From Salvator merianae (taxonomy: Eukaryota; Chordata; Lepidosauria; Squamata; Teiidae): DNA of 64,000 nucleotides. Location: positions 45,307,469 to 45,371,468 of the forward strand of contig QVOM02000073.1 in NCBI GenBank assembly GCA_003586115.2, read 5' to 3'. This document shows positions 616 to 31,954 of the stretch, one piece after another (the stretch's first letter is position 1; every line of letters starts with the position of its first letter). Below the pieces are notes generated by a model. The model did no database searches. It was not told the origin of the DNA and worked only from the letters and a program-made list of their open reading frames with translations. Made by a program: the position numbers and the translations under genes.

Positions 616-729
616 TTACTTCACATTTGTTTCCTGTAGGCATCGATTGCGTATAGTTCTAATATAATTCTCTAGTCTTTCGTAAAACTCCTTCATAGTT
701 ATTCGATCTTTTGTGATGGTACAGCTGTC
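616..729 (-). CDS. IL4/IL13-like: Copy A exon 4 (C-terminus and stop)
   Basis: Terminal coding exon of 37 codons plus TAA, after a pyrimidine-rich acceptor ending TTCAAG. It begins DSCTITKDR, continues KEFYERLENYIRTIRNRC and ends LQETNVK. The FYERL...RC pattern parallels the last helix of IL-4 (FLERL...KC). Confidence 0.87.
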   Translation of the reverse strand, partial: DSCTITKDRITMKEFYERLENYIRTIRNRCLQETNVK

Positions 730-3700
730 CTTGAATAGAGGAAGAAAAAGAAATCTCAGCCAAAACAAAGGGCAAAAATAACCACATCCATCATTTGACT
801 CTTTAAAGAGAAGCCGTGTACCTTAGGAGCCCCTGTTTGATTTCCAAAGAACACACATACAAGAAGGGGTAACTCGAGGGTATGAGCCCAGCCCTGAGAC
901 ACCACTGGCAGTGGGCTAGATTCCTGGGCTGTCTACAGATTTGTCAGAAATGTGGCTGGTTGTATCATGCGCATTGCCCTGTCCCATGCCTTGACGTGAA
1001 ACCTATTTCTAAGCTCCACTTTATGATGGTGGCTTGCCATTCAGCTGGAAAGCACTTCTGTACTCAGAATAGCACGGACGAGTGTGCTGAGACCTCAAGG
1101 GTCTGGGCAGCAGGACTGGAAAAGGACGGCTTGCTTTATGTGCCAAACAAGGCTGACAGCACTGATGTGCAGCACCAGCCTTAGCCACCATGGCCTTTTC
1201 CACATGGTCCCTTCTTCCAGAATAGATTCTGCCCCATGGTCATGCTTCAGCTGCATTGAATGAAACACGACTGGGCAGACTAGTATGCCGAAAATGACAC
1301 CCAACCCCAGGATCGTCGTAGAGCTCAATCTTGAGCTCTATAACTGGTCCAGGGGTAATATACTGGACCACAGAGGCCCAGTATACTATGGGGGACCCTT
1401 TTCAGTGGCACTCCAGTGGCAAGGACTTGAGTGAAATGGGTGTGCACATGCAAACTGCCCCGTCCCCCTCCACTTGCAACCCGACCCAGGTTGGCACTGT
1501 TGTTTATTCCAGGATGGGACAACCCAGCCTGCTCCAGAAAGGCAAGCGTGAAAAAGTCTCAGCCCTGGAGCACATGTGGGCACATCAAGCTCTTGGTCCT
1601 AAATGAGTCATTGGCCCTTCAAAGCTGGTTCAGGTTGGGCTATCCACCATGCCCGGACTGCCTAGCATGGCCAGCCCAGCGCAGGAGTTTGCAGGCAAAA
1701 AGAAGCTGGAATACTTGCTGAGGGAAGGAACACATCCCATAGCCTCGTTTTTGTTGGTGGAATCAAATATATATTCTCAATCCAAAGTCTAGATCTCCGC
1801 TGTGCCTGTGCAATGGGATCCCTCCCTCCGCCTGTTCTAGTTCCCAGGATTTTCTGAATGGTTGCTCCTTGTGAACTGAGCTGCACTGTCACTGCAGGAA
1901 AACACGCTGTGTTTGTGCGTGGCCTTCTGTACCTGCACACAGTGGATGAGGAAGCCTGAAGGCACAGGCATGGAGACTTGGGAATGACAGCCTTGGGGAC
2001 AACAGTGGAACCATCATGCCCTTCTCCAGGGTCGCCTGAGGCTGCAAACGAGGCTGCCCAATGCAGCCCAGGGGTTGGCACAGTGAAGACATGGACCCTG
2101 TCCTTGCCCTTTGTTTGAAGTCCACATGGAACTGGAAAACTGTCTTTTGATCTGACCCATTAAACACTGGCTGCTACTGCTAATTAGCATGGAATATATG
2201 GAGACCTGAGTTTATTTTTGTCTACCCAGCAAATATATTCTGTTAATGCTAATGTTTAATGTGGATTGTAATTATGCATTTTTTTTTACTTCAAGGAAGC
2301 TCTTTTCTTACATTTGCAAGAATAAATCTTAAATGTTTTCTAGCTTACATTGCTAATTTGTTTGTTTTTCTGTATGTTTGCATATCTATTCCACCCAATA
2401 CCTTAAGGTCTGAGGTCAGATTACTATAAAACCAATAAGATAAACAAAGACAAAAAGTAATTCATTAAAAAAACCACACCTTTAAGGAGTGATAGTGGAG
2501 GCACAGATCTCCCACAGATCTAAGGTATCATAATTATAAACAAAACTGTAAAAAAAATGTTCAAAGTTGCATTCTATACTTACATAGCCTCCAACCAAGA
2601 TCTTTGGTGCTTTGATTCTTGCGACAATGCTACTGCAAACAGGTTGAGAGAAATTCTGCAGAGCTTTGTTGACTTCACAGAAAGCTTTCTTGTAACCTGA
2701 ACACTGTAAGGAAGATGATAGAATGGACTGAGCACTGAAGGTTTATCAACGTTTCTGAAAGCAGCATTCATACCTTGTTCCCCTTTGAGGTTTCTGTTCT
2801 GGGGTAACATTAGGGATGGTCTTCTACACAGGTTGTGTTGAAAACATTGTATTTATTTTATTAATTAAAATGTTTCATGCTGCATGCCATTATAAAATAA
2901 AGCAGTTTGTAATAATAAAAAACGCAGACATAAGAACATAAGAGGAGCCTTGCTGGATCAGGCCACGGCCCGTCTAGTCCAGCATTCTGTTTCACACAGT
3001 GACCCACCAATTGCTTCTAGGCATTCTCAAGCAGAAGATAAAGGCAAAACCTTCACCTGCTCTTGACTCCCTGCAAATGGTTTTACAGACAAAAAGATTT
3101 GTACATAAAAACAAAGACCCGCAGTGCATGGGGAAAGAAAAGCCATTCTCACACAGGGAAGGCCTGGGCTTAAAATGGGCCTTTTACCACTATCCACATT
3201 AGAATGGAATTGAATGTGCAGCACAGATACTGCCCACACTGCATGTATTTTCCCGTTGAAAATATTTTGTTTCCCAAATTTGTTATTTTAACTTTAAGCA
3301 TTCACCTAATCCAACCCCCGTTTAGAAGCAACTTTCCCATTGCTATTCTCAGCTGTCCACCCTTAACTGAAAACTTTTCCTCTAGATTTACTTCTTCATA
3401 ATATGTTTTCATTTTCACAGCCTCTCAGATATGGACAGGTATTTTGAGCCAACAGTCCAGAATGATGAGTGAAGAATGGTTGGTGCCTCCTTTGGTAAAA
3501 GGTTTGTAAAAACCTGACCTATTTTGACCATTTATAACGGTAATATTTTTTTCAAATGTCATCATTTGGACACAAAGCTGCCCCCATCCACCCCCCAAAA
3601 TGCTTTATTTTAATAACATCGTAGCTTGCATATGCTCTGCTAAGGCTTTCACTTACTATTGGTTCATCGGAAAAGTCGATCTCTCTTATTGGTTTGTCTC

Positions 3701-4959
3701 CACATTTCTGCAAAACAAAATATAACCAACCAAGCAAGGAATACTTTGTTTTTGTCTTCTGTGGTTAGAAAGCCTGGGCCAATGAAATCCACCTCTGATG
3801 CCTGCCCTTTCTATCAGCTTTGAAGCCTTGAAATCATGGCATATAAAAGACCCCTGATTTTTGCATGTCACAGATATCCTTTGTTACTAAGAATCGGTAA
3901 ATTCTAGTTTGTAAAGCAATGCAAATTACAATACGGTCCTTGATAACAAGACACTTCTTCATGCAGAAGTGGGCAGAAAGCAAATGGAACTGACCAATAG
4001 TGTACCGAGCTCACATTCTCAATTCTGTTTTAGGGGAAGCAATCATAAAGGACTTTTGCACATAGAAAAGATGCACAGTGACTATAATAGCCCAGTGAAG
4101 TCTCTCTGTCTTTAGTAATGCAATATGTAAGGATAAGATTTGGAAAGAAACTACTTGGCATGTCTACTGCCATCAAACATTATCTATGAGCCTGCCAAAG
4201 TTCTTCTCCTGTAGACCAAGCCTGAGTGGTAAAAAGCTGCTATTTCAGATTGATAATCCATCAGACTTAATACTGATCTGCAACTTAACAGAATCAACGC
4301 ACCAGCCAATATCAAGCACATGGGGAAAGGTCTGTGAGAAGGGGAAAGGGATATTTACTTCTTCCTCCAAATTTTATGCTGCTCAATGTACTTTTGGTGG
4401 AGGGACACCATTCTGCTTCCTGAGCTTGTGTGGGCAGAGAAGACTATGCACCCACATCCTGTTTTCCCAAGCACCAGAGACCCAGGAGCATTTCTGACCC
4501 GTGTCTGCTTAGGCCTGTGGTCAAGAAGTAAGGAGCCCAAGGCAGAAGTTAAGGGAATGCATAATGCCAGTTTCAATATAGCACTGCATCAGCTGTTAGA
4601 TGCAATATTTTCCTTCCAACCAATTCTGTTAAGAAGGTCCGACTTCTAACAGAGATCAGAAACGCAAAAGGCAGCAATTTCCCCATAGACTTTGCTTCAA
4701 GCACATTTAGCACACTCCTTGTCATTCTATAATTGTTAAGCAAGCAAAACATGCAATAAAACAAAGATATTTGATTTACCTTCAAGATAGCTTTTGTTTG
4801 AGTGATATTTGTGTACAGGCCTTGCACATCTCTTGTGAATTCATTGTTCTCTGGTTCCTTTGCGCTTCTTTTATGCATTGCTATAGGTTGTAATGGAATA
4901 GTAGAAGTAATTTCTAAGAACACAGAGATTGCCAGGATTACTTTCAAGACCGTGATCAT
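616..4959 (-). CDS. IL4/IL13-like: IL-4/IL-13-like cytokine, copy A (4 exons)
   Basis: Predicted secreted type-2 helical cytokine of 154 residues. Coding exons in transcript order are 4959-4780, 3707-3657, 2703-2584 and 729-616, all flanked by GT-AG and joined in phase 0. Seen: an N-terminal hydrophobic signal (about residues 1-20), a basic HKR at 29-31, N-glycosylation motifs NIT (51) and NFS (94), and cysteines at 62, 78, 86, 100, 120 and 147. Exon 3 FC-(13)-C resembles IL-13 (YC-(11)-C), while the C-terminal SC...FYERL...RC pattern resembles IL-4 (SC...FLERL...KC). The exon sizes fit either gene, and the position downstream of RAD50 in the same orientation is that of IL13/IL4. By family knowledge it would bind IL-4R-alpha-type receptors and drive type-2 immunity; this is inferred. 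IL-13 versus IL-4 orthology is unresolved. IL-5 is unlikely because it lies on the other side of RAD50. Confidence 0.87.
730..2583 (-). other. Copy A intron 3, with unit-specific repeat block
   Basis: A 1.85-kb intron. The block at roughly 1330-2170 recurs in copy C (27290-28300) and inverted at 23100-23684, but is missing from copy B, whose intron 3 is only 0.84 kb. Open frames in this block recur only because the DNA is duplicated. A degraded L2 3' tail lies near 2340-2520. No exon is recognised. Confidence 0.55.
2584..2703 (-). CDS. IL4/IL13-like: Copy A exon 3
   Basis: A 120-bp exon after acceptor CTTACAG and before donor GTAAGT, encoding 40 residues. It starts CSGYKKAFCEVNKALQ and ends with APKILVGGY. 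It holds three cysteines and the glycosylation motif NFS. The first-codon cysteine is absent from mammalian IL-4 and IL-13. Confidence 0.87.
2931..3085 (+). mobile_element. Interspersed repeat insertion in copy A intron 2
   Basis: The sequence begins TAAGAACATAAGAGGAGCC and contains GGATCAGGCC and GTCTAGTCCAGCATTCTGTT, a common reptile interspersed repeat. It is flanked by CAGACA at 2925-2930 and again at 3086-3091. Copies B and C have a single CAGACA at the equivalent site, so this is a copy-A-specific insertion made after duplication. A related fragment lies in the opposite orientation at about 49420-49500. Confidence 0.7.
3657..3707 (-). CDS. IL4/IL13-like: Copy A exon 2
   Basis: A 51-bp exon after acceptor TTTTGTTTTGCAG and before donor GTAAGT. 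It encodes KCGDKPIREIDFSDEPI in phase 0. The size sits between human IL4 exon 2 (48 bp) and IL13 exon 2 (54 bp), and the single cysteine near its start matches both families. Confidence 0.88.
4780..4959 (-). CDS. IL4/IL13-like: Copy A exon 1 (signal peptide and helix A region)
   Basis: The exon has 60 codons, starts at ATG 4959 and ends ...AAG before donor GTAAAT. The start is chosen because the hydrophobic leader MITVLKVILAISVFLEITST follows directly and a TATA box lies about 60-70 bp upstream. It ends with TNITQTKAILK, close to the end of IL-13 exon 1 (NITQNQK). It contains no cysteine, unlike human IL-4 exon 1. Confidence 0.88.
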
Positions 4960-5852: not shown

Positions 5853-7884
5853 CAAAATTATAACCTATTATGTCAGGATTGGAATGAAGATGAAATGCCA
5901 AGACATCTATAACTAAAAGGAAGAGGATTGGTGAAAGAGGGCAACCCTGATAGATTCCTTTAGCCAATTGAAATGGATAAAAATGAGTATTGTTGGTCTT
6001 TAATTGAACCAAGGAGGAGCTACAAAGGGAGCCCAGAAATTTTATTAGTTGTAAATTAAACCTCATATGTTCCAATACAGAAAATAAAAAGTTATGATCA
6101 ATGTTATCAAAAGGTTTGTAAATGTCCAATGATAATAAAGCTAAGGTCTTGCCTGTGCATCTGGCATGGTGAATTGCATTAAGGGCAAGTCTAATTGGGT
6201 TGGCAATAGACTTTTTGGCATAAAACCGTATTGTTCCTTTCCAATTATTTCAGTAATGAAAATATTTAGTCTTTGGGATAAAATAGGAGAGAGGGTTTTA
6301 AAATCAACATTTAACGGTGAAATAGGTCTAGATGTGGTTATTATCTGATTAAATTTTCCATTTTTCAAGCAGATAACCTTTGAAGAAGAGCGCCAGAAAC
6401 CTGGTATGGAACTGGAATGTAGAATCAAGTTATATAAACTGACCAGTTTTGGAGAGAGAAGATCAGAAAAAGATTTGCAGAACACAGAAGAGAAAACATC
6501 TAATCCAGGGACTTTATTGTTTTTGAGGTGTTTAATAGTGTTTTGGACTTCTTGTAAAGTGATGCCTTGCTCTTTTATTTCTCTGTGGATGGCAGATAAT
6601 TTAGGGAGAGAAGAAGACAGATAGGAAGAAGAGTCAAGAGATAAAGATGGAGAAAAATATAGCTCTTGACAGAATTCCAATGTAGTAGAAATAATTTTGG
6701 AAGGATCAGTGGTAATCTGGCTAGCTTGGGTTTTTAGTCTAAAGATAATTTTTTTTGTCTCTTCTGTTTAAGGAGCGAGGCTAAAAGTTTAGACTTTTTA
6801 TTGACAAATGCATAACATTTGTGCCACAAATATATCTGGTTTCTGGCATCTTGTTCAGAATCAATCAGAGCAAGGTCATGACATTTGGCAGACAATTTGG
6901 CATACACTGAGAAAGCCTGAATGAGCGTGTAGTTTTTCTAATTTTTTAATTTTTCAACTCTCTGGTATCTTTGTACAGAGGTATTTTTTTTCCTGCCTCA
7001 GAAATACATAGGCCTCTAATTACAGCTTTCGTAGCTTCCCATTGTGTTACTATAGATGTATCTGGAGTGTCGTTGAATTCAAAATAGTTTTGGAGTTCTT
7101 TAGGAATTTTATCTTTAGAAGTTGACCAATTAATTAATGAGGGATTAAAGCGCCATAATTTGGAAGCAGAAAGAGGAGAGTTTAATGTAAGTCAGGCAAT
7201 CAAGTGGTCAGAAAAAGAACAAGGCAAAATATTAGAAGACGTAAAAGATAAAACTGATGGCTTGTTACAGAGAATATAATCAATCTGGGAGAAAAAAAAG
7301 GAAAATTCTCAGGAATTAGCATTTAGCAGTCTAAATGTGTCAATTAAATTAAATTTATTAAATACCCTTCCAGAAGTTTTCCCTTTGTGTGAACGTGGCC
7401 CAGTGGCACAGGACTTTGTCTCTGTGGAGGTGTCTGCTGTAATGTTGAGGTCACCAGTTACAATGAGGTTTTCATAAGAAAAAGAAGCAAGTTTCTGAAA
7501 AGTATTGTGTAGACATGGAAGTTGGTTACTGTTAGGGGTGTAGAGATTGGGCAGTGTTATTTTCTTACCATATAATGAAGCATTAAGGCTTAAGAAGCTA
7601 CCTTTAGGGTTTTTCCATATTTCTTCCAATTGAAATGGAAGAGATGGGTCAATAAAGATAGCCACCCCGCAGGATTTTGAAGTGCCAGGGGCTGAGTATA
7701 CTCTTGAAAAATGGGATTGTTTAAAAATAGAGTGAAATTTTCCTGTGAAGTGGGTTTCCTGCAGAAGTAAAAAGCACAGAGTGACTTGGTGAAAGAAATT
7801 TAAGACCTTTCTACATTTCACCACATGGGTGAGACCATTCACGTTAAGTGACATGAGTTTACTTTCTGTCATGGAACATATCAA
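5853..7884 (-). mobile_element. L1-type LINE ORF2 fragment, degraded
   Basis: Minus-strand frames give an endonuclease domain (7884-7309: start KLMSLNVNGLTHVVK, then LLQETHF and VTGDLNITAD), then an RT segment (6680-6141) and [18 protein letters not shown] near 5980. The frame is broken in several places, and the RT is cut at about 5852 where Tc1 sequence begins. The C-terminal third and 3' UTR are therefore absent. It is a dead retrotransposon. Confidence 0.85.
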
Positions 7885-8294: not shown

Positions 8295-10262
8295 ATATAT
8301 GGATACATTTATTTATTTATTTATTTATTTGTATCTTTATCCCACCTTATATCTGAAGGTCTCAGAGCGGGTTACTACAATTAAAAAAAAAACGTAAAAG
8401 GCACACAATAAAGCAGTAGCCTGAAACTGGGGAGGGAAAGCTGTACCTTGCCAAAGGTGAGGGTAAACAGGTGTGTCTTTACTGTTTTCCTACAGATGTA
8501 AAGTGAAGAAGCTTGACGCATCTCAGGGAGAAGAGTGTTCCACAGTCTGGGGGCCACCACTGAAAAGACCCTATCCCAGATGCCCATGCTTCTAGTTATT
8601 GAAGGTAGTGGTACAACCAGGAGGGCATCTGCAGATCTTAAGGCATGGGCAGGTTGATATGGGAGAAGACGTTCCTTTAGGTATTTGGGGCCCAAGCCAT
8701 TTAGGGCCTTGTAGGTTAAGGTTAACATATTGAATTGGGCTCAGTGCAGCTCTTTTAAGACCAGCATGATATGCATCCGGCCAGCCGTTCTAGTCAGCAG
8801 TCTTGCTACTGCATTCTGCACCAGTTGCAGCTTCCAAACCGTCTTCAAGGGTAGCCCCATGTAAAGAGTGTTACAGTAATCCAATCCTGAAGTTACCAAA
8901 GCATGAATTACTGTGGCCAAATCGTTTCTGTCCAGAAGGGGTCATAGTTGGCAAACCAGCCGTAGCTGGAGGTATGCATTCTTGGCCACTGCCTCCACCT
9001 GAGTTTCAAGTGTAAGTGCAGAGTCCAAGAGTACACCCAGATTCCACACCTGTCCTTTCCAGGGCAAAGCAAATACCCATCAAGGGCCAGATGCTTTCCA
9101 ACTTCCTGGACCCGAGACCCTGTGATACACAGTACCTCCGTCTTGTCTGAATTCAGCTTCAATTTATTGGCCCTCATGCAACCCATTACTGCATCCAGGC
9201 ACCTGTCCAATGCTTCAACGACCTGTCCTGATTCAGATGGCACAGATATGTAGAGCTGAGTGTCACCTGCATATTGATGATATCTGACTCCAAATCTCCT
9301 GATGACCTCCCCCAGTGGCTTAATATAGATATTGAAAAGCATGGGAGATAAGATCGATCCCTGAGGAACCCCACACCTGAGTTCCCAGGATGTTGAGCAG
9401 GAATCTCCCACAACTACCTTCTGGAATTTTACCAGGGAATGATCAATCCATGACAATGGGCTTATCATTAGCCCTCCTATCGATGGATTCTCATCAGTCG
9501 GGTCTGTGCCAAAGACCAGATCGAGGGTATGGCCTGCTGTGTGAGTTGGGCCGCTTACAAACTGAGACAGCCCCATAGTTGTCATGGAGGCCATGAAGAA
9601 CGGAGCTAGGCCACTGAGGATAGTCTCCACATGGATGTTAAAATCTCCCAACACCACTGTGGCAGGGGCCTCCAATACCACATTGGAGATCACCTCAACC
9701 AGCTCAGATAGGGAGGCTGCTGGGCAGCGGGGTGGGCGGTACACCAGCAACATCCCTATTCCGTTTCTGTGGCCCAGTAACAAAAACAGTGCCTCAAACG
9801 CAGTTGTAGAGCAGATTGGTTGTCTGGTAAGAGAGATAGAAGTCCTATGGACCACAGCAACACTCCCTCCCTCCCTTCCGGTCTGGAACAGTGCTGCATC
9901 GAATAGCCTGGGCGACAAAGCTGGGTAAGATTAGGCCCACCCAGTTCATCTATCCAGACCTCCATAAAGCATGTCAGATCTGCCCCTTTATGCAGGATTA
10001 AGTCATGGATGAGTGATGTTTTATTCTGGACTAATCTGACATTCAAAAGCAGCAGCACCAGGGTGGTGGGCCACTTGGCAGACATCCCCAAGTTCTGCCA
10101 GTTGGAAGGCAGAACAGAAGGAGTGATAGCTTTAATACATCTAACACTCCTTCTCCTAATCTGTGGCTTCTGCCTCCCAGCGCCATATCTCCCCCTGCCT
10201 ATCATCACAGGGATGGTAGCCCCCTGTGACAGTTCTCTCCCTCCAACCCTGCCTTGACACAT
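8295..10262 (-). mobile_element. L2-type LINE, 3' half with internal deletion
   Basis: Minus strand. The endonuclease part (10262-9450) shows LLNVRLVQNKTSLIHDLIL and VVLGDFNIH. It runs into RT GVPQGSILSPMLFNIYIKPL (about 9370) with most of the N-terminal RT deleted. The YADD box reads YAGD, which would abolish polymerase activity. The C-terminal L2 signature FSVVAPRLWNTLLPEMRQ is in 8381-8728. An ATTTA-type tandem tail at 8306-8332 marks the 3' end. Several frame breaks are present. Confidence 0.87.
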
Positions 10263-12030: not shown

Positions 12031-12063
12031 GAAAAAGCACGCCTAAAGAACCTTGCGCAAGAT

Positions 12064-13192: not shown

Positions 13193-13309
13193 TTACTTCG
13201 CATTTGTTCTCTTTAGGCAATCATCACGTATATATATAACATAACGCTGAAGGGTTTCGTAAAAGTCCTTCACAGTTATTCGGTTATTATGTTCGATGTT
13301 GCAGTTGTC
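13193..13309 (-). CDS. IL4/IL13-like: Copy B exon 4
   Basis: 38 codons plus TAA after acceptor TGTTAAAG. It begins DNCNIEHNNRITVKDFYETL and ends RDDCLKRTNAK. It has one codon more than copy A. A possible AATAAA lies about 105 bp downstream (13083-13088). Confidence 0.87.
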   Translation of the reverse strand, partial: DNCNIEHNNRITVKDFYETLQRYVIYIRDDCLKRTNAK

Positions 13310-14083: not shown

Positions 14084-14121
<38 letters not shown>

Positions 14122-17100
14122 TATTTGAAGTTTGCATTCCATACTTACATTGTGTCCAACCAAGATCTTTGGTGCCTTGATTCTTGGGACAATCCTACTG
14201 CAAACATCTTGAGAGACATTCTGCAGAGCTTTGTTGATTTTACAGAATATTTCATTGTACTTTAAGCACTATAAAGAAGATGATAGAATGGTCTGAGCAC
14301 TGTAAGTTTATCAACATTTCTGAAAGCAGCATTCATACCATGTTTCCTTTTATTTTATTAATTAAAATATTTCATGCTGCTTGGCATTATAAAATAAAGC
14401 AGTTTATAATAATAAAAAATCAGACAAAGAGATCTGTACATAAAAACAAAGACCTCCAGTGGGTGGGGAAAGGAAAACCATTCTCGCACAGGCAGGACCC
14501 AGATGAAAAATTCTTCCTACAACAGGTCCTTGGAAGTTGCAAAGGTCCGGGCCTTACAAATATCTTGCAGTGACCCCAAATCTGTGCAGGGGAAAGGCCC
14601 AAGAACGAAACAGAATTTGCAGAGATCACTCTCCTCCCAGTCCCCCAAAGTGCAGCCTGTGTCGTTGGGTCTTGAAAAGCTCTTCAGCAAAAGCAGCTCA
14701 AAAGGACAGCAGGAGTCAAACACAGCAACTCCTTGCACACCTGCTCAGACATAAGCAGCTCCAAATCCAACACAACGCGGTCCAAAGCCACAATAAATTA
14801 GACAGTGCAGACTAACCACTTCCCCTCTGATCTAAGTCCTGTTGGGCCCAGTAGTACTACCAGCCTGAACGCGCTCAAAAAAAGATCTGAATCAATTCAT
14901 GGACGCTGGGAGTCTCAACGCGGATGGGCTCTTAGCCCTGATGGCAGCAGGAGGTGGTCTGACCCCAAGACCACTGCCGGGAGACTGCGGGCAGAGCAAG
15001 CTGTGTGCTCGTGTCCTCCAGTGGGGGCTGATTTTAAACCAGATTCCAGCCCTTCAGTAGCCCCCCTCCCCGTGCATCCACATAGGGGGAAGACAGAGGT
15101 GAATCCTTCCAAACTCTATGCAGAGGATTATAGTAAAGTTTGGCGGCTGAGCAGTTTAGGAGCTCCCTAGGACACGGGAAGCTCTAGGCACATGGGACAT
15201 GGGGAACGGATGTCTGGACACCTGACCTCTTCTAAAAGGCACAGCAGAGGAAGATTCATTCTACACACACACACACACCCTACAACCGGATGCTCATAAG
15301 GGCCTTGCAGGATTTGGAAAATGCTGCTACTGCTGCTGTATTCCAGTTAAGATGTTGCCCTCTTCACATGCTAAATGTCACAGAAAATACTGTTGATCCA
15401 GTCAGCGCCTTCCTCAAAAATGCAAGGAAGGGAGACGCTCAGCAGCATTTATGCTTGTGGGAAGCAGAAAACAGTAAAGGAAGTGTATTTGCCCGTTGAA
15501 AATACTTTGTTTCCCAAATTTGGTATTTTAACTTTAAGCATTCACCTAATCCAACCCCCTTTTAGAAGAAGGTTTCCCATTGCTATTTTCAGCTGTCCAC
15601 AGTTAACTGAAAATTTTTCCTCCAGATATACTTCTTCATAATATTTTTTCATCTTCACAGCCTCTCAGATATGGACAGGTATTTTGAGCCAAGGTATACA
15701 ATTTCTCAAAGAAATGCAACAGTCCAAAATGATGAGTGAAGAATGGCTGGTGCCTCCTTTGGTAAGAGTTGTGTAAAAATGTGACCATTTAAAATGGTCA
15801 CATTTTTTTTGGTCTCATCGTTTTGACACAAAGCTGCCCCCATCCTCCCCCCCAAATGCTTTATTTAAATAACATCATAGCTTGCATATGCTCTGTTAAG
15901 GCTTTCACTTACTAATGATTTAACAGGGAAGTTGATATCGCTGATTGGCTCATCTCCACATTTCTGCAAAACAAAATGGGATCAGTCAAACAAGGAATAC
16001 TTGGTTTTTGTCTTTGGTGGTTAGAAAGCCTGGGACAGCAAAATCCACCTCTGATGCCTGCCCTTTCTATCAGCTTTGAAGCCTTGAAATTATTGTATAA
16101 AGACCCCTGATTTTAGAATGTTCCCAAGAAAGGCATACTGCTGTACATGCACAGATTATCACCTCCAGTTTGTAAAACATAGCAAATTACAATACGGTCC
16201 TTGATAACAAGACACTTCTTCATGCAGAAGTGGGCAGAAAGCAAATGGAACTGACCAATAGTGTACCTAACCCACATTCTCAATTCTGTTTTAGGGGAAG
16301 CAATCATAAAGGACTTTTGCACATAGAAAAGATGCACAGTGACTATAATAGCCCAATGAAGTCTCTCTGTCTTTAGTGATGCAATATGTAAGGATAAGAT
16401 TGGCATGTCTACTGCCATCAAACATTATCTATGATCATGCCAAAGTTCTTCTCCTGTAGACCAAGCCTGAGTGGTAAAAAGCTGCTATTTCAGATTGATA
16501 ATCCATCAGACTTAATACTGATCTGCAATTTAACAGAATCAACGCACCAGCCAATATTAAGCACATGGGGAAAGGTCTGTGAGAAGGGGAAAGGGATATT
16601 TACTTCTTCCTCCACATTTTATGCTGCTCAATGTACTTTTGGTGGAGGGACACCATTCTGCTTCCTGAGCTTGTGTGGGCAGAGAAGACTATCCACCCAC
16701 ATCCTGTTTTCCCAAGCACCAGAGACCCGGGAGCGTTTCTGACCCATATCTGCTTAGGCCAGTGGTCAAGAAGTAAGGAGCCCAAGGCAGAAGTTAAGGG
16801 AATGCATATTGCCAGTTTCAATATAGCATTGCATCAGCTGTTAGATGCAATATTTTCCTTCCAACCAATTCTGTTAAGAAGGTCCAACTTCTAACAGAGA
16901 TCAGAAACGCAAAAGGCAGCGATTTCCCCTTAGACTGTTGCTTCAAGTACATTCAGCTCACTCCTTGTCATTCTATAATTGTTAAGCAAGCAAAACATGC
17001 AGTAAAACAAAGAAAGATATTTGATTTACCTTCAAGACAGCTTTTGTTTCAGTGATATTTGTGCACAGGCCTTTCACATCTCTTCTCAATTCATCGTACT

Positions 17101-21617: not shown

Positions 21618-22430
21618 AGAAGACACTGGCATAGGAGAACGTGACAGCAGTGGGTGAGGGGAGCAATGGGAATGTTACTATCCTGTGGGCAATACATTTC
21701 CTTAAGAACAGTGGGAATGGATTGCTGTTCCTATTTGGCACTCATTCCTAACCATAGGCTGCATCTAGACAGGGTCAAAACCCCACACCTCTTTCAGAAT
21801 TCTATTTGGTTTGCCAAATGTGATCATGGTGCTCCCAATACAGTCCCGAAATACAGACCCAATATCCCAAGTTTCAGATATTGTGTTGCATGCTAAATTG
21901 TGGAATATCGAACTAAGGTCTGGCCAGAGTGAAATAATCCTAGGAGTACCCAGAATAGGAGAATAGGTAAGTGACATCTGGAGTGCCAGTAGTTCCATGG
22001 CAGGCCATCTGCTTTGCATGCCAGCAACCCAGGTTCGATCCCATTTGTCTAGAAAGAGACAAGGGCTAACCGCTTCCATACTGATGCAGCAACACTATAT
22101 GGGCACATCCATACAGTCACCAGTAGGCAGGCATGCCTTGTGGTACCGTTACTTAAACAACGTAGAAGGGTTCAATCCATCCTTTGATTCGTATAAATGG
22201 CCAAAATGGAGTAGTAGGGTTTGCTGTGATTTCTACCTCCACCTTTCTACCTCCATCTCTCTTCCCCTGTTACTACTTTCCCTACCGATTTCTAGTAGAT
22301 ATTAATTTCTAAGAATGGATAGGGATAGTTTAACCCACACATAGATGTACTAAGTGGGTTTAGGAAGACATTTTATAAAGCTAGAAGTGTTGGGGGGGGG
22401 GGAAACACGCCTAAAGAACCTTCCACAAGA
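21618..22430. repeat. Relic unit D, downstream flank in direct orientation
   Basis: Close copy of 11258-12050, ending CACGCCTAAAGAACCTT as unit B does. After that point the expected continuation into a 3' UTR is replaced by inverted gene sequence. A G-run of about 10 occurs at 22392. Confidence 0.75.
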
Positions 22431-23684
22431 TGTTTTCAATACAACTCGTGTAGAAGACCATCCCTGATGTTAGCCTAGAACCGAAACCTCGAAAGGGAAC
22501 ATAGTATGAATGCTGCTTTCAGAAATGTTGATAAGCTTACAGTGCTCAGTCCATTCTATCATCTTCTTTACAGTGTTCAAGTTAAAATGAAACATTCTGT
22601 AAAGTCAACAGAGCTCTGCAGAATCTCTCTCAAGAAGTTTGCAGTAGCACTGTCGAAAGAATCAAGGCACAAAAGGTATTGGCTGGTGCATATTGAAGTA
22701 TGGAATACAAATTTTGAATTTATTTTTTTAACAACTTCGTTTATAATTATGCTACTTTAAATTTGTGGGAGAAGCCCCCTTGGTGGTACCTCCACTATCA
22801 TTCCTTAAAGGTAGGGAAGCACATCATGGGGCCTTCTCTGTAGTGGCCCCCAGGCTGAGGAATAATTTCACATCTCAGATACATCTCACACGCTCATTAT
22901 ATGCATTCAAAAACACGATAAAGACACACCTCTTTATCCTTAGGCGTTGGCTGAAAAAGTAGCTTGCCGTCCCCTTTCAGGCACTTCTAACTGTGTTTTT
23001 TTAAATGAATTCCATTTTCGTTCTGTTTATCTTATTAGTTTTATTGTAATCTGTCCTGAGACCATAGAGTACAGGGTAGGATAGAAATGCAAACAAACTA
23101 ATTAGCAGTGTTGAAATGGGTCAGATCAAAACAAAATTTTCCACTGCCATGTGCACCTCAAAGAAAGGGCACAGACAGGGGCAATGTCTCCATTGTGCAG
23201 CCCCTGGGCTGATTGGTTGCCCTCCTTCACAGCCTCAGGCATCCCTGAAGAAGGGCCTGATAGTTCCTCTGCTGTCCCCAAGGATGTCATTCCCAAGTCT
23301 CCATGCCTGTGCCTTCAGGCTTCCTCATCCACTGTGTGCAGGTACAGGAGGCCACGCACAAACACAGCGTGTTTTCCTGCAGTGACAGTGCAGCTCAGTT
23401 CACAAGGAGCACCCATTTGGAAAATCCTGGGTACTAGAACAGGTGGAGAGAAGGATCCCATTGCACAGGCACAGCGGAGATCTAGACTTCTGATGGAGAA
23501 TATGTATTTGATTCCACAAACAATGCATTCCTTCCCTCAGCATGCATTCCAGCTTCTTTTTGCCTGTCAACTCCTGCAGAAGTCTGTTTCTATAGGTCAG
23601 AATGGCCCTTTCCACATCCTGTGCTGGGCTGGCCATGCTATGCAGTCTGGACATGACAGACAGCCCAACCTGAACCAGCTTTGA
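22430..23684 (+). repeat. Relic unit D, inverted piece
   Basis: On plus, this matches the minus strand of unit A from about 2850 down to about 1620 (intron 2 edge, exon 3, intron 3). L2 C-terminal sequence (FSVVAPRLRNNFTSQI) lies at 22830-22960. Exons 1, 2 and 4 are not included. Confidence 0.8.
22574..22693 (+). pseudogene. Orphan dead exon 3 of an IL-4/IL-13-like gene
   Basis: An acceptor CTTTACAG is kept, but the exon reads TGT TCA AGT TAA, a stop at codon 4. The donor GTAAGT of the other copies has become TTGAAGTATG. It is on the strand opposite to the three live genes and has no partner exons nearby, so it is non-functional. Confidence 0.8.
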
Positions 23685-23698: not shown

Positions 23699-24114
23699 CA
23701 CTGGCATAGCAAGGGGTGGCGCGGGTGGCGGTGCGCACTGGGTGGCGCCTTGTTGGGGGCGGCAGCTGCCTTTGACTTGGGCCCTCCCGCCCGCCCTGCG
23801 TCCGGTTTGCCTTTAGTCGGCTTACCGGTGCGTCCGCTGCTCGCTCGCCCCGCCCGCCGCTCGCTCGCCCCGCCCGCCGCTCGCTCACCTCGCTCGTCCC
23901 GCCCCGCCCGCCGCTCGCTCGCCCTGCCCGCCGCTCGCTCACCTCGCTCGCCCCGCCCGCCGCTCGCTCGCCGTGCCTGCTGGCGTGCGCGCGCGCGGCC
24001 ATCATCACGGCGAGTAGGCAGCTGCAGGGCGGGGCGTCCTGCAGGGCGGGGCGCCCTGCTCGGCTACCGCCGTTTCGTCCGCCCCGGGCGGCGGAACATG
24101 TAGCTACACCACTG
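23699..24114. mobile_element. Non-autonomous hAT-like transposon with 8-bp TSD
   Basis: The ends CACTGGCATAGC and GCTACACCACTG are imperfect inverted repeats of the widespread CAGTGGCGTAGC terminus. The element is flanked by an exact 8-bp duplication GACGTACT (23691-23698 and 24115-24122). The interior is extremely CpG-rich, with tandem copies of a CGCCCGCCGCTCGCTCGCC unit at 23840-23975. Open frames across it are compositional. Confidence 0.85.
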
Positions 24115-24116: not shown

Positions 24117-25375
24117 CGTACTGCTCAAAACAATTAATGGAACACGTAAGCATCACAATATGACTTCAAGTCACTTAAACTTCAGGGATATCCATCTGTC
24201 CAGTTGGGAAGCATAAGCAATTGTGAATTGCTCTGGTGCAAATGAAAGTGACAACAGGTGCACTTGAGGGGCAACAGCAAGACAATACCCAGAAAGGGAA
24301 TGGTTTTGCAGGTGGTGGCCACACACAATACTATCTCCTTATCATTCCTGACTGATTCTTCTCTAGTTTTCCATTATGCTAGCATCCTTGTCACTACTGG
24401 TAGCATGGGGTGATACCTGCAGCCCATTCAGGTTGCACAGGTTGTCCAGCTCCTCCAGGATGGCACATCCATACATGCTGTTGCAAGAAGGTTTGATGTA
24501 TCTCCCAGCACAGTCTCAACAGCATGGAACAGACTCCAGGAAATGGGCTGTTACATGAGGAGAGCTGGACAAGGCCGTAGAAGGGCATCAACCCAGCATC
24601 GGGATTGGCATCTGCTTCTTTGTGTGAGGAGGGACAGGAGGAGCACTGCCAGAGCCCTACAAAATGTCCTCCAGTGAGCTACTGCTGTGCATGTTTCTGA
24701 CCAAACTATCAGAAACATAATTCACGAGGGTGCCCTGAGGGCCCAACATCCTGTAGTGGGACTTGTGCTCCCAGTCCAACACCATGCAGCTTGATTGGTA
24801 TTTGCCAGAAAACACCAGAATTGGCAGGCCCACCACTGGTGCTCAGTTCTCCTCACAGATGAGAAGAGGTTCACACTGAGCACATGTGACAGAGATGAAG
24901 GAGTCTGGGGACATCGTGGTAAATGTTATGCTGCCTGCAACATCATCCATCATGACTGGTCTGGTGGTGGGTCAGCAATGGTCTGGGGAGACATGACCTT
25001 GGAAAGTTGCACAAACCTCTACATGATGATGAAGTCATTGAGGCCATTGACTGCCCTCACGTTCCCCAGGCCTGAATCCAATTTGAGAACCTCTGGGACA
25101 TTATATAGCGGTGCATCTGATGATGCCAAGTAGTGCCCAGACTGTCCAGGAGCTCACTGATGCCCTGACCCAGGTGTGGGAGCAGATCCATCTGCAATCT
25201 CATCAGGAGCATGTCCAGACATTGTCGGGAGTGCATACAGGCATGTGGGGGCCATAAACACTACTAAGTCACATTATGAGTTGCCATGATGAAATTCAAG
25301 CAAATTGGATCTGTTTGTGATTTCAATTTTTTACTTTGATTTTCAGGGTGATTTGGAATGCAGCCCTCAATTGGT
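24117..25375 (+). mobile_element. Tc1/mariner-like transposon, degraded
   Basis: The 5' terminus TACTGCTCAAAACAATTAAT is typical of vertebrate Tc1 elements. A decayed transposase follows: the helix-turn-helix part (about 24440-24670) and a catalytic part (24795-25133) with LTDEKRFTL and GGGSAMVWGDM. Frameshifts separate them. The sequence stops at GCAGCCCTCAATTGGTT, just short of the expected 3' terminal repeat, and abuts unit C. Confidence 0.85.
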
Positions 25376-25409
25376 TGAAAAAACATGCCTAAAGAACCTT
25401 GCTGAAGAT

Positions 25410-26588: not shown

Positions 26589-26684
26589 CTATAGGCAACG
26601 ATCACGTATATTTCTAACATAATCCTCTAGTGTTTTGTAAAAGTCCTTCACAGTTATTCGGTTACGTTCGATGGTGCAGTTGTC
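26589..26684 (-). CDS. IL4/IL13-like: Copy C exon 4, early stop
   Basis: 31 codons plus TAG: it begins DNCTIERNRITVKDFYKTLE and ends RDRCL. The downstream codons that would encode the copy A-like tail are still present after the stop, so the truncation is a recent single-base change. Confidence 0.86.
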   Translation of the reverse strand, partial: DNCTIERNRITVKDFYKTLEDYVRNIRDRCL

Positions 26685-29600
26685 CTTTAACAGAAGAAGA
26701 AAAAGAAATCTCAGCCAAAATAAAAGACAAGAATAACCACATCCACCGTTTCCTTTTTAAAGAGAAGTCATGCACCTGAGGAGCCTGTTTTTATTTTCCC
26801 AAAGAACACACATGCCATAAGAGACAACTTGAGGGCATCAGCCCAGCCCTGGGACACCACTGGCAGTGGGCTAGATTTCTGGGCTGTCTACATATCTGTC
26901 AGAAATGTGGGTGGTTGTATCATGTGCATTGCCTTGATGTAAAACCTATTTCTAAGCTCCACTTTATGATGATGGCTTGCCATTCAACTGGAAAGCACTT
27001 CTGTACTCAGAATAGCATGGATGAGTACACTGAGACCTCAAGGTTTTGGGCAGCAGGACTGGAAACGAACAAGGGACAGCTTGCTTTATGTGCCAAACAA
27101 GGCTGACAGCACTGATGTGCAACACCAGCCTTAGTCACCATGGCTTTTTCCACATGGCCCCTTCTTCCAGAACAGATTCTACCCCACAGTCATGCTTCAG
27201 CTGCATTGAATGAAACACAAACTGGGTAGGCTTGGGTGCTGAAAATGGCACCCGACCCTAGGATCATTGTAGACCACAATACTGAGGTCAATAACTGGCC
27301 CAGGGGTGATATACTGGACCACGGAGGTTCATTATACTATGGGGGACCCTTTCAAAGGCACTCCAGTGGCAAGTACTGGAGTGAAATGGGCTGTGCCCAT
27401 GCAACCTACCCTGTCCCCCTCCACTTGCAATCTGTTCCAGCCTAGCACTGTTGCTTATTCCAGGATGGGATGGCCCACCCTGCTCCAGAAGGGCAACCGT
27501 GAAAAAGCCTCAACCCTGGAACACATGTGGCCATCAAGCACTTAGTCTTAAATGAATCATTGGCCCTTTCAGCCTTGGGCTGTTAGATTGGCCCATTAGA
27601 GTGCACAGCACACGTAGTCCTCACGGTGGTCCAGTATACTCTCCAGTAGACTGGCCTGTCCACATAGGACCAGGCCACAGTGTATGCTGCTTCACCAGTA
27701 AACTGCTTATTCCATGGTGGTACACCAGACCACAGACAGCCTGTGGATGGCACATGTCTGTGGGCCAATATACAATGACTGACTGCCATGCCTGGAGTGC
27801 CTAGCATGGCCAGCACAGCGCAGGAATTGGCAGGCAAAAGGAAGCTGGAATGCATGCTGAGGGAAGGAATGCATCCCACAGCCTTGTTTTTGTTCGTGGA
27901 ATCAAATACATATTCTCCATCAGAAGTCTAGATCTCCGCTGTGCCTGTGCAAAGGGATCCCTCTCTCCACCTGTTCTAGTACCCAGGATTTTCCAAATGG
28001 TTGCTCCTTGTGAACTGAGCTGCACTGTCACTGCAGGAAAACACGCTGTGTTTGTGCGTGGCCTCCTGTACCTGCACACAGTGGATGAGGAAGCCTGAAG
28101 GCGCAGGCATGGAGACTTGGGAATGACATCCTTGGGGACAGCAGAGGAACCGTCAGGCCCTTCTCCTGAGGCTGTGAAGGAGGCCATCCAGTACAGCCCA
28201 GGAACTGACACAGTGGAGACATGGACCCTGTCCTTGCCCTTCGTTTGAAGTCCACATGGCACTGGAAAACTGTCTTTTGATCTGACCCATTAAACACTGG
28301 CTGCTACTGCTAATTAGCATGGGATATATGGAGACCTGAGTTTATTTTTGTCTACCCACAAATATATTCTGTTAATGCTAATATTTAATTTGGATTTTAA
28401 TTATGCGGGTTTTTTTACTTTAAGGAAGCTCTTTCCTTACATTTGCAAGGATAAATCTTAGATGTTTTCATTGCTAATTTGTTTTTCTGTTTGTTGTTTG
28501 CATTTCCATCTCACACTGTAGCCTAAGATCTCAGGGCAGAATAAAACCAATAAGATAAACAGAACGAAAATGGAATTCATTAAAAAAAACACAATTAGAA
28601 GTGCCTGAAAAGGGAGGGCAAGATAATTTTTCAGCCAAAGCCTAAGATAAAGAGGTGTGTCTTAATCATGTTTTCCAATGCATATAATGAGGGGGTGAGA
28701 TACACCTCAGATGTGAGAGATTGTTCCTCAGTCCAGGGGCCACTATAGAGAAGAGCCCATCAAGTGCTTCCATACGTTTAAGGAGTGATAGTGGAGACTC
28801 TGCCAAAAGGGCTTCTCTCACAGATCTAAAGTATCATAATTATAAAAAAGAGGTTCACTGTTTGCATTTCATACTCACATAGCCTCCAACCAAGATCTTT
28901 GGTGCCTTGATTCTTGGGACAATGCTGCCACAAACAGCTAGAGAGAGATTCTGCAGAGCAGTGTTGACTTCACAGAATGTTTTATTGTAATTTGCACACT
29001 GTAAAGAAGATGATAGAATGGTCTGAGCACTGTAAGTTTATCAACATTTCTGAAAGCAGCATTCATACCATGTTTCCTTTTATTTTATTAATTAAAATAT
29101 TTCATGCTGCTTGGCATTATAAAATAAAGCAGTTTATAATAATAAAAAATCAGACAAGGAGATCTGTACATAAAAACAAAGACCTCCAGTGGGTGGGGAA
29201 AGGAAAGCCATTCTCACACAGGGAAGACCCGGATGAAAAAACTGTCCTACAACAGGTCCTTGGAAGTTGCAAAGGTCTGGGCCTTACAAATATCTTGCAG
29301 TGACCCCAAATCTGTGCAGGGGAAAGGCCCAAGAACGAAACACAATTTGCAGAGATCACTCTCCTCCCAGTCCCCCAAAGTGCAGCCTGTGTCGTTGGGT
29401 CTTGAAAAGCTCTTCAGCAAAAGCAGCTCAAAAGGACAGCAGGAGTCAAACACAGCAACTCCTTGCACACCTGCTCAGACATAAGCAGCTCCAAATCCAA
29501 CACAACGCGGTCCAAAGCCGCAATAAATTAGACAGTGCAGACTAACCACTTCTCCTCTGAGCTAAGTCCCGTTGGGCCCAGTAGTACTACCAGCCTGAAT

Positions 29601-31954
29601 GCGCTCAAAAAAAGATCTGAATCAATTCATGGAAGCTGGGGGTCTCAACCCGGATGGGCTCTCAGCCCTGATGGCAGCAGGAGGTGGTCTGACCCCAAGA
29701 CCACTGCCGGGAGACTGCAGGCAGAGCAAGCTGTGTGCTCGTGTCCTCCAGTGGGGGCTGATTTTAAACCAGATTCCAGCCCTTCAGTAGCTCCCCTCCC
29801 TGTGCATCCACATAGGGGGAAGACAGAGGTGAATTCTTCCAAACTCTATGCAGAGGATTATAGTAAAGTTTGGCGGCTGAGCAGTTTAGGAGCTCCCTAG
29901 GACACGGGAAGCTCTAGGCACATGGGACATGGGGAACGGATGTCTGGACGCCCGACCTCTTCTAAAAGGCCCAGCAGAGGAAGATTCATTCTACACACAC
30001 ACACACACCCTACAACCGGATGCTCATAAGGGCCTTGCAGGATTTGGAAAATGCTGCTACTGCTGCTGTATTCCAGTTAAGATGTTGCCCTCTTTACATG
30101 CTAAATGTCACAGAAAATACTGTTGATCCAGTCAGCGCCTTCCTCAAAAATGCAAGGAAGGGAGACGCTCAGCAGCATTTATGCTTGTGGGAAGCAGAAA
30201 ACAGTAAAGGAAGTGTATTTGCCCGTTGAAAATACTTTGTTTCCCAAATTTGGTATTTTAACTTTAAGCATTCACCTAATCCAACCCCCTTTTAGAAGCA
30301 GGTTTCCCATTGCTATTCTCAGCTGTCCACAGTTAACTGAAAATTTTTCCTCCAGATATACTTCTTCATAATATTTTTTCATTTTCACAGCCTCTCAGAT
30401 ATGGACAGGTATTTTGAGCCAAGGTATACAATTTCTCAAAGAAATGCAACAGTCCAAAATGATGAGTGAAGAATGGCTGGTGCCTCCTTTGGTAAGAGTT
30501 GTGTAAAAATGTGACCATTTAAAATGGTCACATTTTTTTTGGTCTCATCGTTTTGACACAAAGCTGCCCCCATCCTCCCCCCCAAATGCTTTATTTAAAT
30601 AACATCATAGCTTGCATATGCTCTGTTAAGGCTTTCACTTACTAATGATTTAACAGGGAAGTTGATATTGCTGATTGGCTCATCTCCACATTTCTGCAAA
30701 ACAAAATGTGATCAATCAAACAAGGAATACTTTGTTTTTGGTTTTGGTGGTTAGAAAGCCTGGACCAGTGAAATCCACCTCTGATGCCTGCCCTTCTATC
30801 AGCTTTGAAGCCTTGAAATTATTGTATAAAGACCCCTGATTTTAGAATGTTCCCAAGAAAGGCATACTGCTGTACATGCACAGATTATCACCTCCAGTTT
30901 GTAAAACATAGCAAATTACAATACGGTCCTTGATAACAAGACACTTCTTCATGCAGAAGTGGGCAGAAAGCAAATGGAATTGACCAATAGTCTACCTAAC
31001 CCACATTCCCAATTCCGTTTTAGGGGAAGCAATCATAAAGGACTTTTGCACATAGAAAAGGTACACAGTGACTATAATAGCCCAATGAAGTCTCTCTGTC
31101 TTTAGTAATGCAATATGTAAGGATAAGATTTGGAAAGAAACTACTTGGCACGCCTACTGCCATCAAACATTATCTATGAGCCTGCCAAAGTTCTTCTCCT
31201 GTAGACCAAGCCTGAGTGGTAAAAAGCTGCTATTTCAGATTGAGAATCCATCAGACTTAATACTGATCTGCAACTTAACAGAATCAACGCACCAGCCAAT
31301 ATCAAGCACATGGGGAAAGGTCTGTGAGAAGGGGAAAGGGATATTTACTTTTTCCTCCAAATTTTATGCTGCTCAATGTACTTTTGGTGGAGGGACACCA
31401 TTCTGCTTCCTGAGCTTGTGTGGGCAGAGAAGACTATCCACCCACATCCTGTTTTCCCAAGCACCAGAGACCCGGGAGCGTTTCTGACCCGTGTCTGTTT
31501 AGGCCTGTGGTAAAGAAGTAAGGAGCCCAAGGCAGAAGTTAAGAGAATACATAATGCCAGTTTCAATATTAGCATTGCATCAGCTGTTAGATGCAATATT
31601 TTCCTTCCAACCAATTCTGTTTAGAAGGTCCGACTTCTAACAGAGATCAGAAATGCAAAAGGCAGCAATTTCCCCATAGACTTTGCTTCAAGCACATTTA
31701 GCACACTCCGTGTCATTCTATAATTGTTAAGCAAGCAAAACATGCAATCAAATAAAGAAAGATATTTGATTTACCTTCAAGTCAGCTTTTGTTTGAGTGA
31801 TATTTGTATACAGGCCTTGCACATCTCTTGTGAATTCATTGTTCTCTGGTTCCTTTGCGCTTCTTTTATTCATTGCTATAGGTTGTAATGGAATAGTAGA
31901 AGTAATTTCTAAGAACACAGAGATTGCCAGGATTACTTTCAAGACCGTGATCAT
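26589..31954 (-). CDS. IL4/IL13-like: IL-4/IL-13-like cytokine, copy C (4 exons)
   Basis: Predicted 148-residue secreted cytokine; coding exons are 31954-31775, 30693-30643, 28998-28879 and 26684-26589. Splice sites are canonical (the exon 3 donor is GTGAGT). Cysteines lie at 62, 78, 86, 100, 120 and 147, and glycosylation motifs NIT (51) and NLS (94) are kept. The end is six residues shorter than copy A because a CAG codon became TAG right after the last cysteine and leucine; all six cysteines are retained, so function is plausible. Exon 1 is nearly copy A, exon 2 nearly copy B. The proximal promoter lacks the GATA pair and a foreign element lies about 220 bp upstream of the TATA box. Being next to RAD50 it occupies the IL13 position. 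Confidence 0.86.
27290..28830 (-). other. Copy C intron 3 block
   Basis: Same block as copy A intron 3 (1330-2170) followed by the shared L2 3' fragment (28480-28830). It contains an extra stretch at 27560-27790 with a repeated CCAGTATACT/CCACCATGG-type motif not seen in A. No exon is recognised. Confidence 0.45.
28879..28998 (-). CDS. IL4/IL13-like: Copy C exon 3
   Basis: Begins CANYNKTFCEVNTALQNLS and ends APKILVGGY, with donor GTGAGT. About 14 of 40 residues differ from copy B despite near-identical flanking intron 2 sequence. Confidence 0.87.
30643..30693 (-). CDS. IL4/IL13-like: Copy C exon 2
   Basis: Encodes KCGDEPISNINFPVKSL; one residue from copy B. Same acceptor and GTAAGT donor. 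Confidence 0.88.
31775..31954 (-). CDS. IL4/IL13-like: Copy C exon 1
   Basis: 60 codons; only two residues differ from copy A (MNKR versus MHKR, and ADLK versus AILK near the end). It differs from copy B at many positions after residue 29. The donor is GTAAAT. Confidence 0.88.

What the first reader, a model, noticed from the sequence alone, without database searches (positions are those of the whole stretch)
616..31954. Three intact IL-4/IL-13-like genes in tandem next to RAD50
Four-exon cytokine genes A, B and C share phases, splice sites, leader and cysteines, lie on the RAD50 strand and follow its 3' end, where other tetrapods have one IL13 and one IL4. All three have uninterrupted frames. 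A lineage-specific expansion of the type-2 cytokine locus would change how this animal runs anti-parasite or barrier immunity.
Basis: partly seen in the sequence, partly recalled or inferred. Interest (0 to 1): 0.88.

Follow-up and report, generated by a model that had tools for sequence, protein, structure and literature searches.

The report
Five tandem IL-4-like cytokine genes
In this unnamed vertebrate genome (probably a reptile), the spot where mammals and birds carry one IL-4 and one IL-13 gene holds instead a row of five intact, diverging IL-4-like genes, which suggests that this lineage expanded its main anti-parasite, allergy-type immune signal.

Summary
A, B and C are complete four-exon genes at the stated place; the same assembly holds two more (D, E) just left of the window. 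All 15 genome-wide tblastn matches lie in this array, in gap-free sequence between RAD50 and KIF3A. Exon number, intron phase, strand, synteny and a helix-D exon resembling IL-4 place them in the IL-4/IL-13 family; Pfam alone does not. IL-4 is the best-scoring relative; exon 3 (120 nt) has the size reported for undivided IL-4/13 genes. I found no separate IL13 or IL4 there. DNA blocks of 1 kb or more differ by 4-17%, so these are not haplotype duplicates. Neutral simulation rejects decay; a site model supports diversifying selection, though no single gene pair does. Exons give different trees, so copies have swapped segments. Corrections: five copies, not three; A ends six residues early; closest to IL-4, not IL-13. 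Expression, receptor binding, species and spread are untested. Tandem IL-4/13 sets are reported in elephant shark and frog: a new variant of a known kind.

The parts
31775..31954 (-). gene A exon 1 (signal peptide and predicted helix A; 60 codons)
30643..30693 (-). gene A exon 2 (17 codons)
28879..28998 (-). gene A exon 3 (40 codons)
26589..26684 (-). gene A exon 4, ends at a TAG six residues before the end of C; protein 148 aa
17030..17209 (-). gene B exon 1
15913..15963 (-). gene B exon 2
14149..14268 (-). gene B exon 3 (identical in DNA to exon 3 of gene D outside the window)
13193..13309 (-). gene B exon 4; protein 155 aa
4780..4959 (-). gene C exon 1
3657..3707 (-). gene C exon 2
2584..2703 (-). 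gene C exon 3
616..729 (-). gene C exon 4; protein 154 aa
32018..32025 (-). TATAAATA, 71 bases upstream of the A start codon
17273..17280 (-). TATAAATA, 71 bases upstream of the B start codon
5023..5030 (-). TATAAATA, 71 bases upstream of the C start codon
22574..22693 (+). inverted exon-3 relic with an internal stop, inside an inverted piece of the gene body at about 22430-23577
48740..64000 (-). 3' part of RAD50 (the gene continues to about +116100, outside the window); flanking anchor gene
   Evidence: recalled human RAD50 as query

Best explanation
A lineage-specific tandem array of five secreted four-helix cytokines of the IL-4/IL-13 family, closest to IL-4, fills the interval between RAD50 and KIF3A in which mammals and birds have one IL13 and one IL4. 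Shown here: five genes with the same exon structure, signal-peptide-like leader, splice sites and TATA box; retention against neutral decay; mosaic exon histories; site-model support for diversifying selection. Inferred: the array grew by unequal exchange of units of about 11-15 kb, copies then traded segments by gene conversion or recombination, while selection changed the mature protein, most of all exon 4, the helix-D exon that in IL-4 recruits the second receptor chain. Each copy would be secreted by type-2 lymphocytes, bind IL-4R-alpha and pair it with the common gamma chain or IL-13R-alpha-1, the copies differing in potency, receptor pairing, timing or cell of origin. Expression and receptor binding were not tested.
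For: Exons, phases and splice sites: 5 of 5 genes. Genome-wide tblastn: all 15 matches at E<=0.001 lie in this array. Synteny: RAD50 minus strand 116100..48740, KIF3A plus strand -80393..-54675 in window coordinates, one gap-free interval. IL-4 likeness: human IL-4 26.5 and mouse IL-4 23.0 are the two highest hhalign scores of ten cytokine sequences, 0 of 150 shuffles each reaching them; exon 4 against human IL-4 exon 4 gives 36 identities over five copies, reached by 2 of 20,000 shuffles. Six cysteines kept in 5 of 5; sequons at residues 51 and 94 in 5 of 5. Retention: 0 of 20,000 neutral simulations. Selection: M2a over M1a 2dlnL 17.84, p=1.3e-4; exon 4 alone omega 2.85, p=0.011. Mosaic: three partitions give three different best trees; B/D exon 3 0 of 120 differences beside exon 4 17 of 117.
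Against: Pfam IL4 matches 2 of 5 members, best E=0.014, below its cut-off, while the unrelated EME1-MUS81_C matches 3 of 5, best E=0.04. Nothing in PDB by sequence (only a nitroreductase at E=1.7; none at E<=10); no hit in the protein collection. Human IL-5 and GM-CSF also score above all 150 shuffles, though lower than IL-4 (19.5 and 19.7). No pair of copies has dN above dS at bootstrap P<0.05; joint omega 1.44 does not differ from 1 (p=0.11), nor do exon 3 (p=0.23) or exon 1 mature plus exon 2 (p=0.46). Only B has AATAAA close behind the stop; in A, C, D, E the first is 963-1173 bases away. A is shortened by six residues. No transcript evidence.
Confidence: 0.8

Rival explanations
1. Assembly artefact or unmerged haplotypes: one or two real genes written several times.
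For: Repeat-rich region; the copies share leader, introns and flanks.
Against: Pairwise blocks of 1 kb or more are 83-93% identical and the closest long block 95.6% over 7.5 kb, not about 99%. Exon 3 and exon 4 differ by up to 17.5% and 27% between copies. The only run of N in the 264 kb examined lies beyond KIF3A. All 15 matches lie on one chromosome-sized sequence in one array.
Confidence: 0.03
2. Decaying duplicates: one copy works and the others are young pseudogenes under relaxed constraint.
For: Pairwise dN/dS of the mature protein is near 1 (0.61-1.39); A has lost six C-terminal residues; a relic exon exists; four of five copies lack a nearby AATAAA.
Against: No stop before codon 146 and no lost cysteine in any of 5 copies, against P=0.0056 and 0.0030 under neutrality, 0 of 20,000 for both; all splice sites and TATA boxes kept; site model with omega>1 preferred.
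Confidence: 0.12
3. The array is not IL-4/13 but an IL-5/GM-CSF-type or new four-helix cytokine that moved into the interval.
For: IL-5 and GM-CSF exceed all 150 shuffles; Pfam does not reach its cut-off for IL4.
Against: IL-4 (human, mouse) scores highest of ten cytokine sequences; the place and strand are those of IL-4/13, not of IL-5 on the far side of RAD50; four exons with phase-0 introns and a 120-nt exon 3 match the IL-4/13 description. The exon-structure match alone would not separate it from IL-5, which has the same layout (recalled).
Confidence: 0.07
4. Some copies are IL13 and some IL4, made alike by gene conversion, rather than an expansion of one gene.
For: Conversion or exchange is clear; no separate IL13 or IL4 was found in the interval.
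Against: All five share the same exon sizes and six cysteine positions; no copy carries the 105-114 nt exon 3 reported for IL-13.
Confidence: 0.15

Closest known systems
IL-4 of mammals and birds
   Same: Position between RAD50 and KIF3A on the RAD50 strand; four coding exons, phase-0 introns; exon 4 with cysteines at the places of C99 and C127 and the T108, F112, L116 positions (IL-4 numbering).
   Different: Five copies instead of one; exon 3 of 120 nt against 126-177 nt reported for tetrapod IL-4; the N-terminal cysteine of IL-4 (C3) has no counterpart, and a cysteine at the first codon of exon 3 is kept in all five instead.
IL-13 of mammals and birds
   Same: Place next to RAD50; an N-glycosylation motif just before exon 2 and one in exon 3, as in human IL-13 (correspondence by eye).
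   Different: No profile similarity beyond shuffles for the human protein (20 of 150) and weak for the mouse one (1 of 150); exon 3 longer than 105-114 nt; extra C-terminal cysteine.
Tandem IL-4/13 genes of elephant shark, and of frogs
   Same: Several IL-4/13 genes in the RAD50-KIF3A interval; exon 3 of 120-129 nt in non-teleost fish, shark and frog (PMC4905449, PMC9465101 and PMC4690019, passages).
Teleost IL-4/13A and IL-4/13B
   Same: Fast-evolving IL-4/13 family with lineage-specific cysteines (PMC4905449, passages).
   Different: The teleost pair comes from whole-genome duplication and sits at two loci; the five here are tandem at one locus.

Membership tests
IL-4/IL-13 family (type-2 cytokine locus) | Lies between RAD50 and KIF3A, on the RAD50 strand | tested here: met
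   RAD50 minus strand, KIF3A plus strand on the other side, five genes minus strand between; human RAD50 and KIF3A queries were recalled.
IL-4/IL-13 family (type-2 cytokine locus) | Four coding exons with three phase-0 introns (PMC4905449, passage) | tested here: met
   5 of 5 genes; definition.
IL-4/IL-13 family (type-2 cytokine locus) | Secreted: N-terminal signal peptide | tested here: met
   Hydrophobic leader in 5 of 5 by a Kyte-Doolittle scan; no dedicated signal-peptide predictor was run.
IL-4/IL-13 family (type-2 cytokine locus) | Matches the Pfam IL4 profile above its cut-off | tested here: not met
   2 of 5 match, best E=0.014, below cut-off. The profile rests mostly on mammals (recalled), so a miss is weak evidence.
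IL-4/IL-13 family (type-2 cytokine locus) | Up-up-down-down four-helix bundle | not tested
   The structure tool takes proteins that the DNA gives letter for letter; these are exon-joined, so none was sent.
IL-4 proper | Sequence nearer to IL-4 than to other short-chain cytokines | tested here: met
   Human 26.5 and mouse 23.0 against 11.8-19.7 for eight other sequences.
IL-4 proper | Exon 3 of 126-177 nt (tetrapod IL-4, PMC4905449 passage) | tested here: not met
   120 nt in 5 of 5.
IL-4 proper | Three disulfides including C3-C127 | tested here: not met
   The C127 place has a cysteine in 5 of 5, the C3 place in none; a cysteine at exon 3 codon 1 may replace it. Bonds themselves not testable.
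IL-13 proper | Exon 3 of 105-114 nt and IL-13-like sequence | tested here: not met
   Exon 3 120 nt; 20 of 150 shuffles reach the human IL-13 score and 1 of 150 the mouse one.
Undivided IL-4/13 (shark, gar, frog) | Exon 3 of 120-129 nt | tested here: met
   120 nt in 5 of 5.
IL-4/IL-13 family (type-2 cytokine locus) | Binds IL-4R-alpha and signals through STAT6 | not testable with these tools
   Needs recombinant protein and receptor.

The most novel reading that the evidence does not exclude
The array is a cytokine repertoire made of agonists and natural antagonists: the place that in human IL-4 is Arg121, needed to recruit the second receptor chain, reads R, I, R, G, K in copies A, B, C, D, E, so copies such as B and D might bind IL-4R-alpha without recruiting the second chain, like the drug pitrakinra (R121D/Y124D; PMC10357448, passages), while others signal. 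Gene conversion and selection at helix D would keep re-sorting agonist and decoy copies.
Probability: 0.15. Interest if true: 0.85.

Novelty: new variant of a known kind. Interest (0 to 1): 0.62.

Why it matters
A review (PMC9465101, passages) says that amphibians and reptiles must be studied to learn when IL-4 and IL-13 parted. A gap-free array of five IL-4-like genes with no recognisable separate IL13 or IL4 gives such a case and makes it testable: did this lineage lose one of the pair, never separate them, or blend them by conversion. It also offers natural variants at the second-receptor surface of IL-4, of use for relating sequence to receptor choice, and a candidate reason for differences in anti-parasite and barrier immunity. 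In six searches of the held library I found no report of such an array in a reptile; most subscription papers are not held, and none of the listed papers was read whole.

Tried and rejected
Pfam, PDB and protein-collection searches were little help. Direct tblastn with recalled human IL4, IL13 and IL5 found nothing significant in 264 kb (best IL4 E=0.14, on the wrong strand of D and B). A possible sixth gene at about -3600 (window coordinates; one tblastn fragment, E=0.48) was read and dropped: repeat-like sequence, no exon structure. Scans for other signal-peptide exons between RAD50 and KIF3A: a strict donor rule missed all five genes (useless as a control); a looser one recovered all five plus four other minus-strand places at about 37.1, 32.9, 16.4 and 12.5 kb that I judged by eye not to be cytokines; with a TATA box required, seven minus-strand rows gave the five genes, a second ATG of E and one row beside E, and six plus-strand rows gave nothing convincing. 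A diverged IL13 or IL4 that these scans miss is not excluded. IL5 was not found within 48 kb beyond RAD50 by a crude scan and was not pursued.

I considered calling the exon-4 divergence of B and D (17 of 117 in a block diverged by 3.0%) an exon-only acceleration and dropped the claim: windows around exon 2 are as divergent (137 of 7058 overlapping windows outside exon 4 reach 17) and the 3' UTR is raised too, so a conversion tract explains part of it. In the intron distances, flank blocks more than 30% diverged were dropped before averaging. In-44 codons of A behind its stop were set to gaps; the codon models are my own code, with five sequences and separate trees per exon group.

The Pfam IL13, IL4 and IL5 searches of the whole genome did not complete: PF00727, PF02025, PF03487. 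So absence of a distant IL13 elsewhere in the genome is untested.

Full report
What is there. The window is C1688:45307469-45371468 of a 2.05-Gb assembly held as G000. Genes A, B and C lie on its minus strand with exons at A 31954-31775, 30693-30643, 28998-28879, 26684-26589; B 17209-17030, 15963-15913, 14268-14149, 13309-13193; C 4959-4780, 3707-3657, 2703-2584, 729-616. All introns are GT-AG and phase 0, and the joined frames are open. A stops six residues before C, at a TAG that replaces a sense codon in the alignment.

Two more genes. A tblastn of protein C against the whole assembly gave 15 matches at E<=0.001 from 23 candidates, all scored, all in one stretch of C1688. Placed exon by exon, they are the exons of A, B and C, of two further complete genes D (C1688:45299943-45294587) and E (C1688:45288789-45284642), and one inverted exon-3 relic inside the window (22574-22693, + strand, with a stop). 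Start-to-start distances of neighbouring genes are about 11 to 15 kb.

The neighbourhood. A recalled human RAD50 maps on the minus strand from about +116100 to 48740 and a recalled human KIF3A on the plus strand from -80393 to -54675 in window coordinates, so the five genes sit between them in the arrangement described for mammals and chicken (PMC9465101, passages). The only run of N in the 264 kb examined is beyond KIF3A. Scans for other signal-peptide exons in the interval, one of which recovers all five genes with a TATA rule, gave no further convincing cytokine gene, and no separate IL4 or IL13 was found; a diverged one is not excluded.

Which family. Pfam does not settle it: the IL4 profile matches 2 of 5, best E=0.014, below its cut-off, and an unrelated family matches 3 of 5, best E=0.04. 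Profile-to-sequence alignment does better: human IL-4 scores 26.5 and mouse IL-4 23.0, with 0 of 150 shuffles reaching either; human IL-13 14.5 (20 of 150), mouse IL-13 17.9 (1 of 150), IL-5 19.5 and GM-CSF 19.7 (0 of 150 each), IL-3 15.1, IL-21 15.9, IL-2 12.2, IL-9 11.8, none above the best of 30 shuffles. The IL-4 match is the helix-D exon. B, D and E align to human IL-4 exon 4 with no gap over 31 columns, A and C with one single-residue gap; the cysteines at C99 and C127 and T108, F112 and L116 are kept in 5 of 5, and the summed identities (36) are reached by 2 of 20,000 shuffles. A published comparison gives four coding exons with phase-0 introns for the whole family and exon 3 of 126-177 nt for tetrapod IL-4, 105-114 for IL-13 and 120-129 for the undivided IL-4/13 of shark, gar and frog (PMC4905449, passages); here it is 120 nt in 5 of 5. 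I therefore file the genes as IL-4/13 family, IL-4-like, not as IL-4 or IL-13 proper.

Anatomy of the proteins. Six cysteines are invariant (residues 62, 78, 86, 100, 120 and 147 or 148); B and E have one more at 49. Sequons at 51 and 94 are in 5 of 5. Compared with IL-4, the N-terminal cysteine is missing and one at the first codon of exon 3 is new; in an up-up-down-down bundle the start of helix B and the end of helix D lie at the same end, so this cysteine could replace the partner of the C-terminal one. That is inference.

Are they real and kept. Pairwise blocks of 1 kb or more are 83-93% identical, the closest long block 95.6% over 7.5 kb, too far apart for haplotypes. Placing the observed 23-43 differences per copy at random on the consensus gives, on average, 3.2 copies with a stop; P for none before codon 146 is 0.0056, for all 30 cysteines kept 0.0030, for both 0 of 20,000.

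Selection. Pairwise dN/dS of the mature protein is 0.61-1.39 in ten pairs and no pair has dN above dS at bootstrap P<0.05. In my codon models the three exon groups have omega 0.78, 1.79 and 2.85; only exon 4 differs from 1 by itself (p=0.011; exon 3 p=0.23; exon 1 mature plus exon 2 p=0.46; all together p=0.11), but a class of sites with omega 5.7 (21%) is preferred (M2a over M1a, p=1.3e-4), with four sites above 0.9 posterior: two in exon 2 and two in exon 4. With five sequences and known exchange between copies this is support, not proof.

Exchange between copies. Best trees are (B,E),(C,D) for exon 1 mature plus exon 2, (A,C),(B,D) for exon 3 and (B,D),(C,E) for exon 4. Exon 3 of B and D is identical while exon 4 differs at 17 of 117 positions within a block that differs by 3.0% on average. 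D and E differ at 28 of 117 positions of exon 4 but at 2 of 297 just downstream. Raised divergence also reaches the 3' UTR of B/D and the surroundings of exon 2, so conversion tracts account for part of the pattern.

How it most likely works. Each gene has a TATAAATA box 63-71 bases before the start codon and a CRE-like ACGTCA site before that. The proteins should be secreted and act through IL-4R-alpha with the common gamma chain or IL-13R-alpha-1 (established for IL-4; PMC7274943, passages). Helix D of IL-4 recruits the second chain, and R121D/Y124D makes IL-4 an antagonist (PMC10357448, passages). The residue at the place of Arg121 is R, I, R, G, K in A-E and at Tyr124 R, R, R, H, R. So the copies may differ in second-chain use; that some are natural antagonists is my boldest reading and untested.

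Against the reading. No transcript data; only B has AATAAA close behind the stop, the others first at 963-1173 bases (C has an ATTAAA at 844); A is shortened; family profiles are below cut-off; the genome-wide Pfam searches did not complete.

Novelty. Tandem or multiple IL-4/13 genes are reported in elephant shark and frogs (PMC9465101, PMC4690019 and PMC4905449, passages), so the kind is known. Five copies, IL-4-like helix D with an undivided-type exon 3, mosaic exons and site-level selection make it a new variant.

Noticed in passing
window 47129-48039: A 910-base A-rich microsatellite of unit AAAGAAAAAA (91 copies) lies just downstream of the RAD50 3' end.
   Followed up: no
window 40217-40852, minus strand: Reading frame with Integrase_H2C2 (E=5.3e-18) and rve (E=1.7e-10): part of a retroelement of the Ty3/gypsy kind by my reading.
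   Followed up: partly
window 8908-9930 and 6141-6767, minus strand: Pieces of LINE reverse transcriptase and endonuclease (PF00078 E=5.7e-14; weaker in the second) between B and C.
   Followed up: no
window 24414-24677, plus strand: Helix-turn-helix piece of a transposase (HTH_7 E=6.9e-09), probably Tc1/mariner-like, between A and B.
   Followed up: no
window 23839-23972: GC-rich tandem repeat (units of 29 and 54 bases) between A and B.
   Followed up: no
window 22430-23577, plus strand: Inverted piece of the gene body (end of intron 2, exon 3, part of intron 3), 72-88% identical to the five genes.
   Followed up: partly
window 8547-16002 and C1688:45289916-45297384: The closest duplicated block (95.6% over 7.5 kb) joins B and D, which are not neighbours, so the array did not grow by simple neighbour-by-neighbour doubling.
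   Followed up: partly
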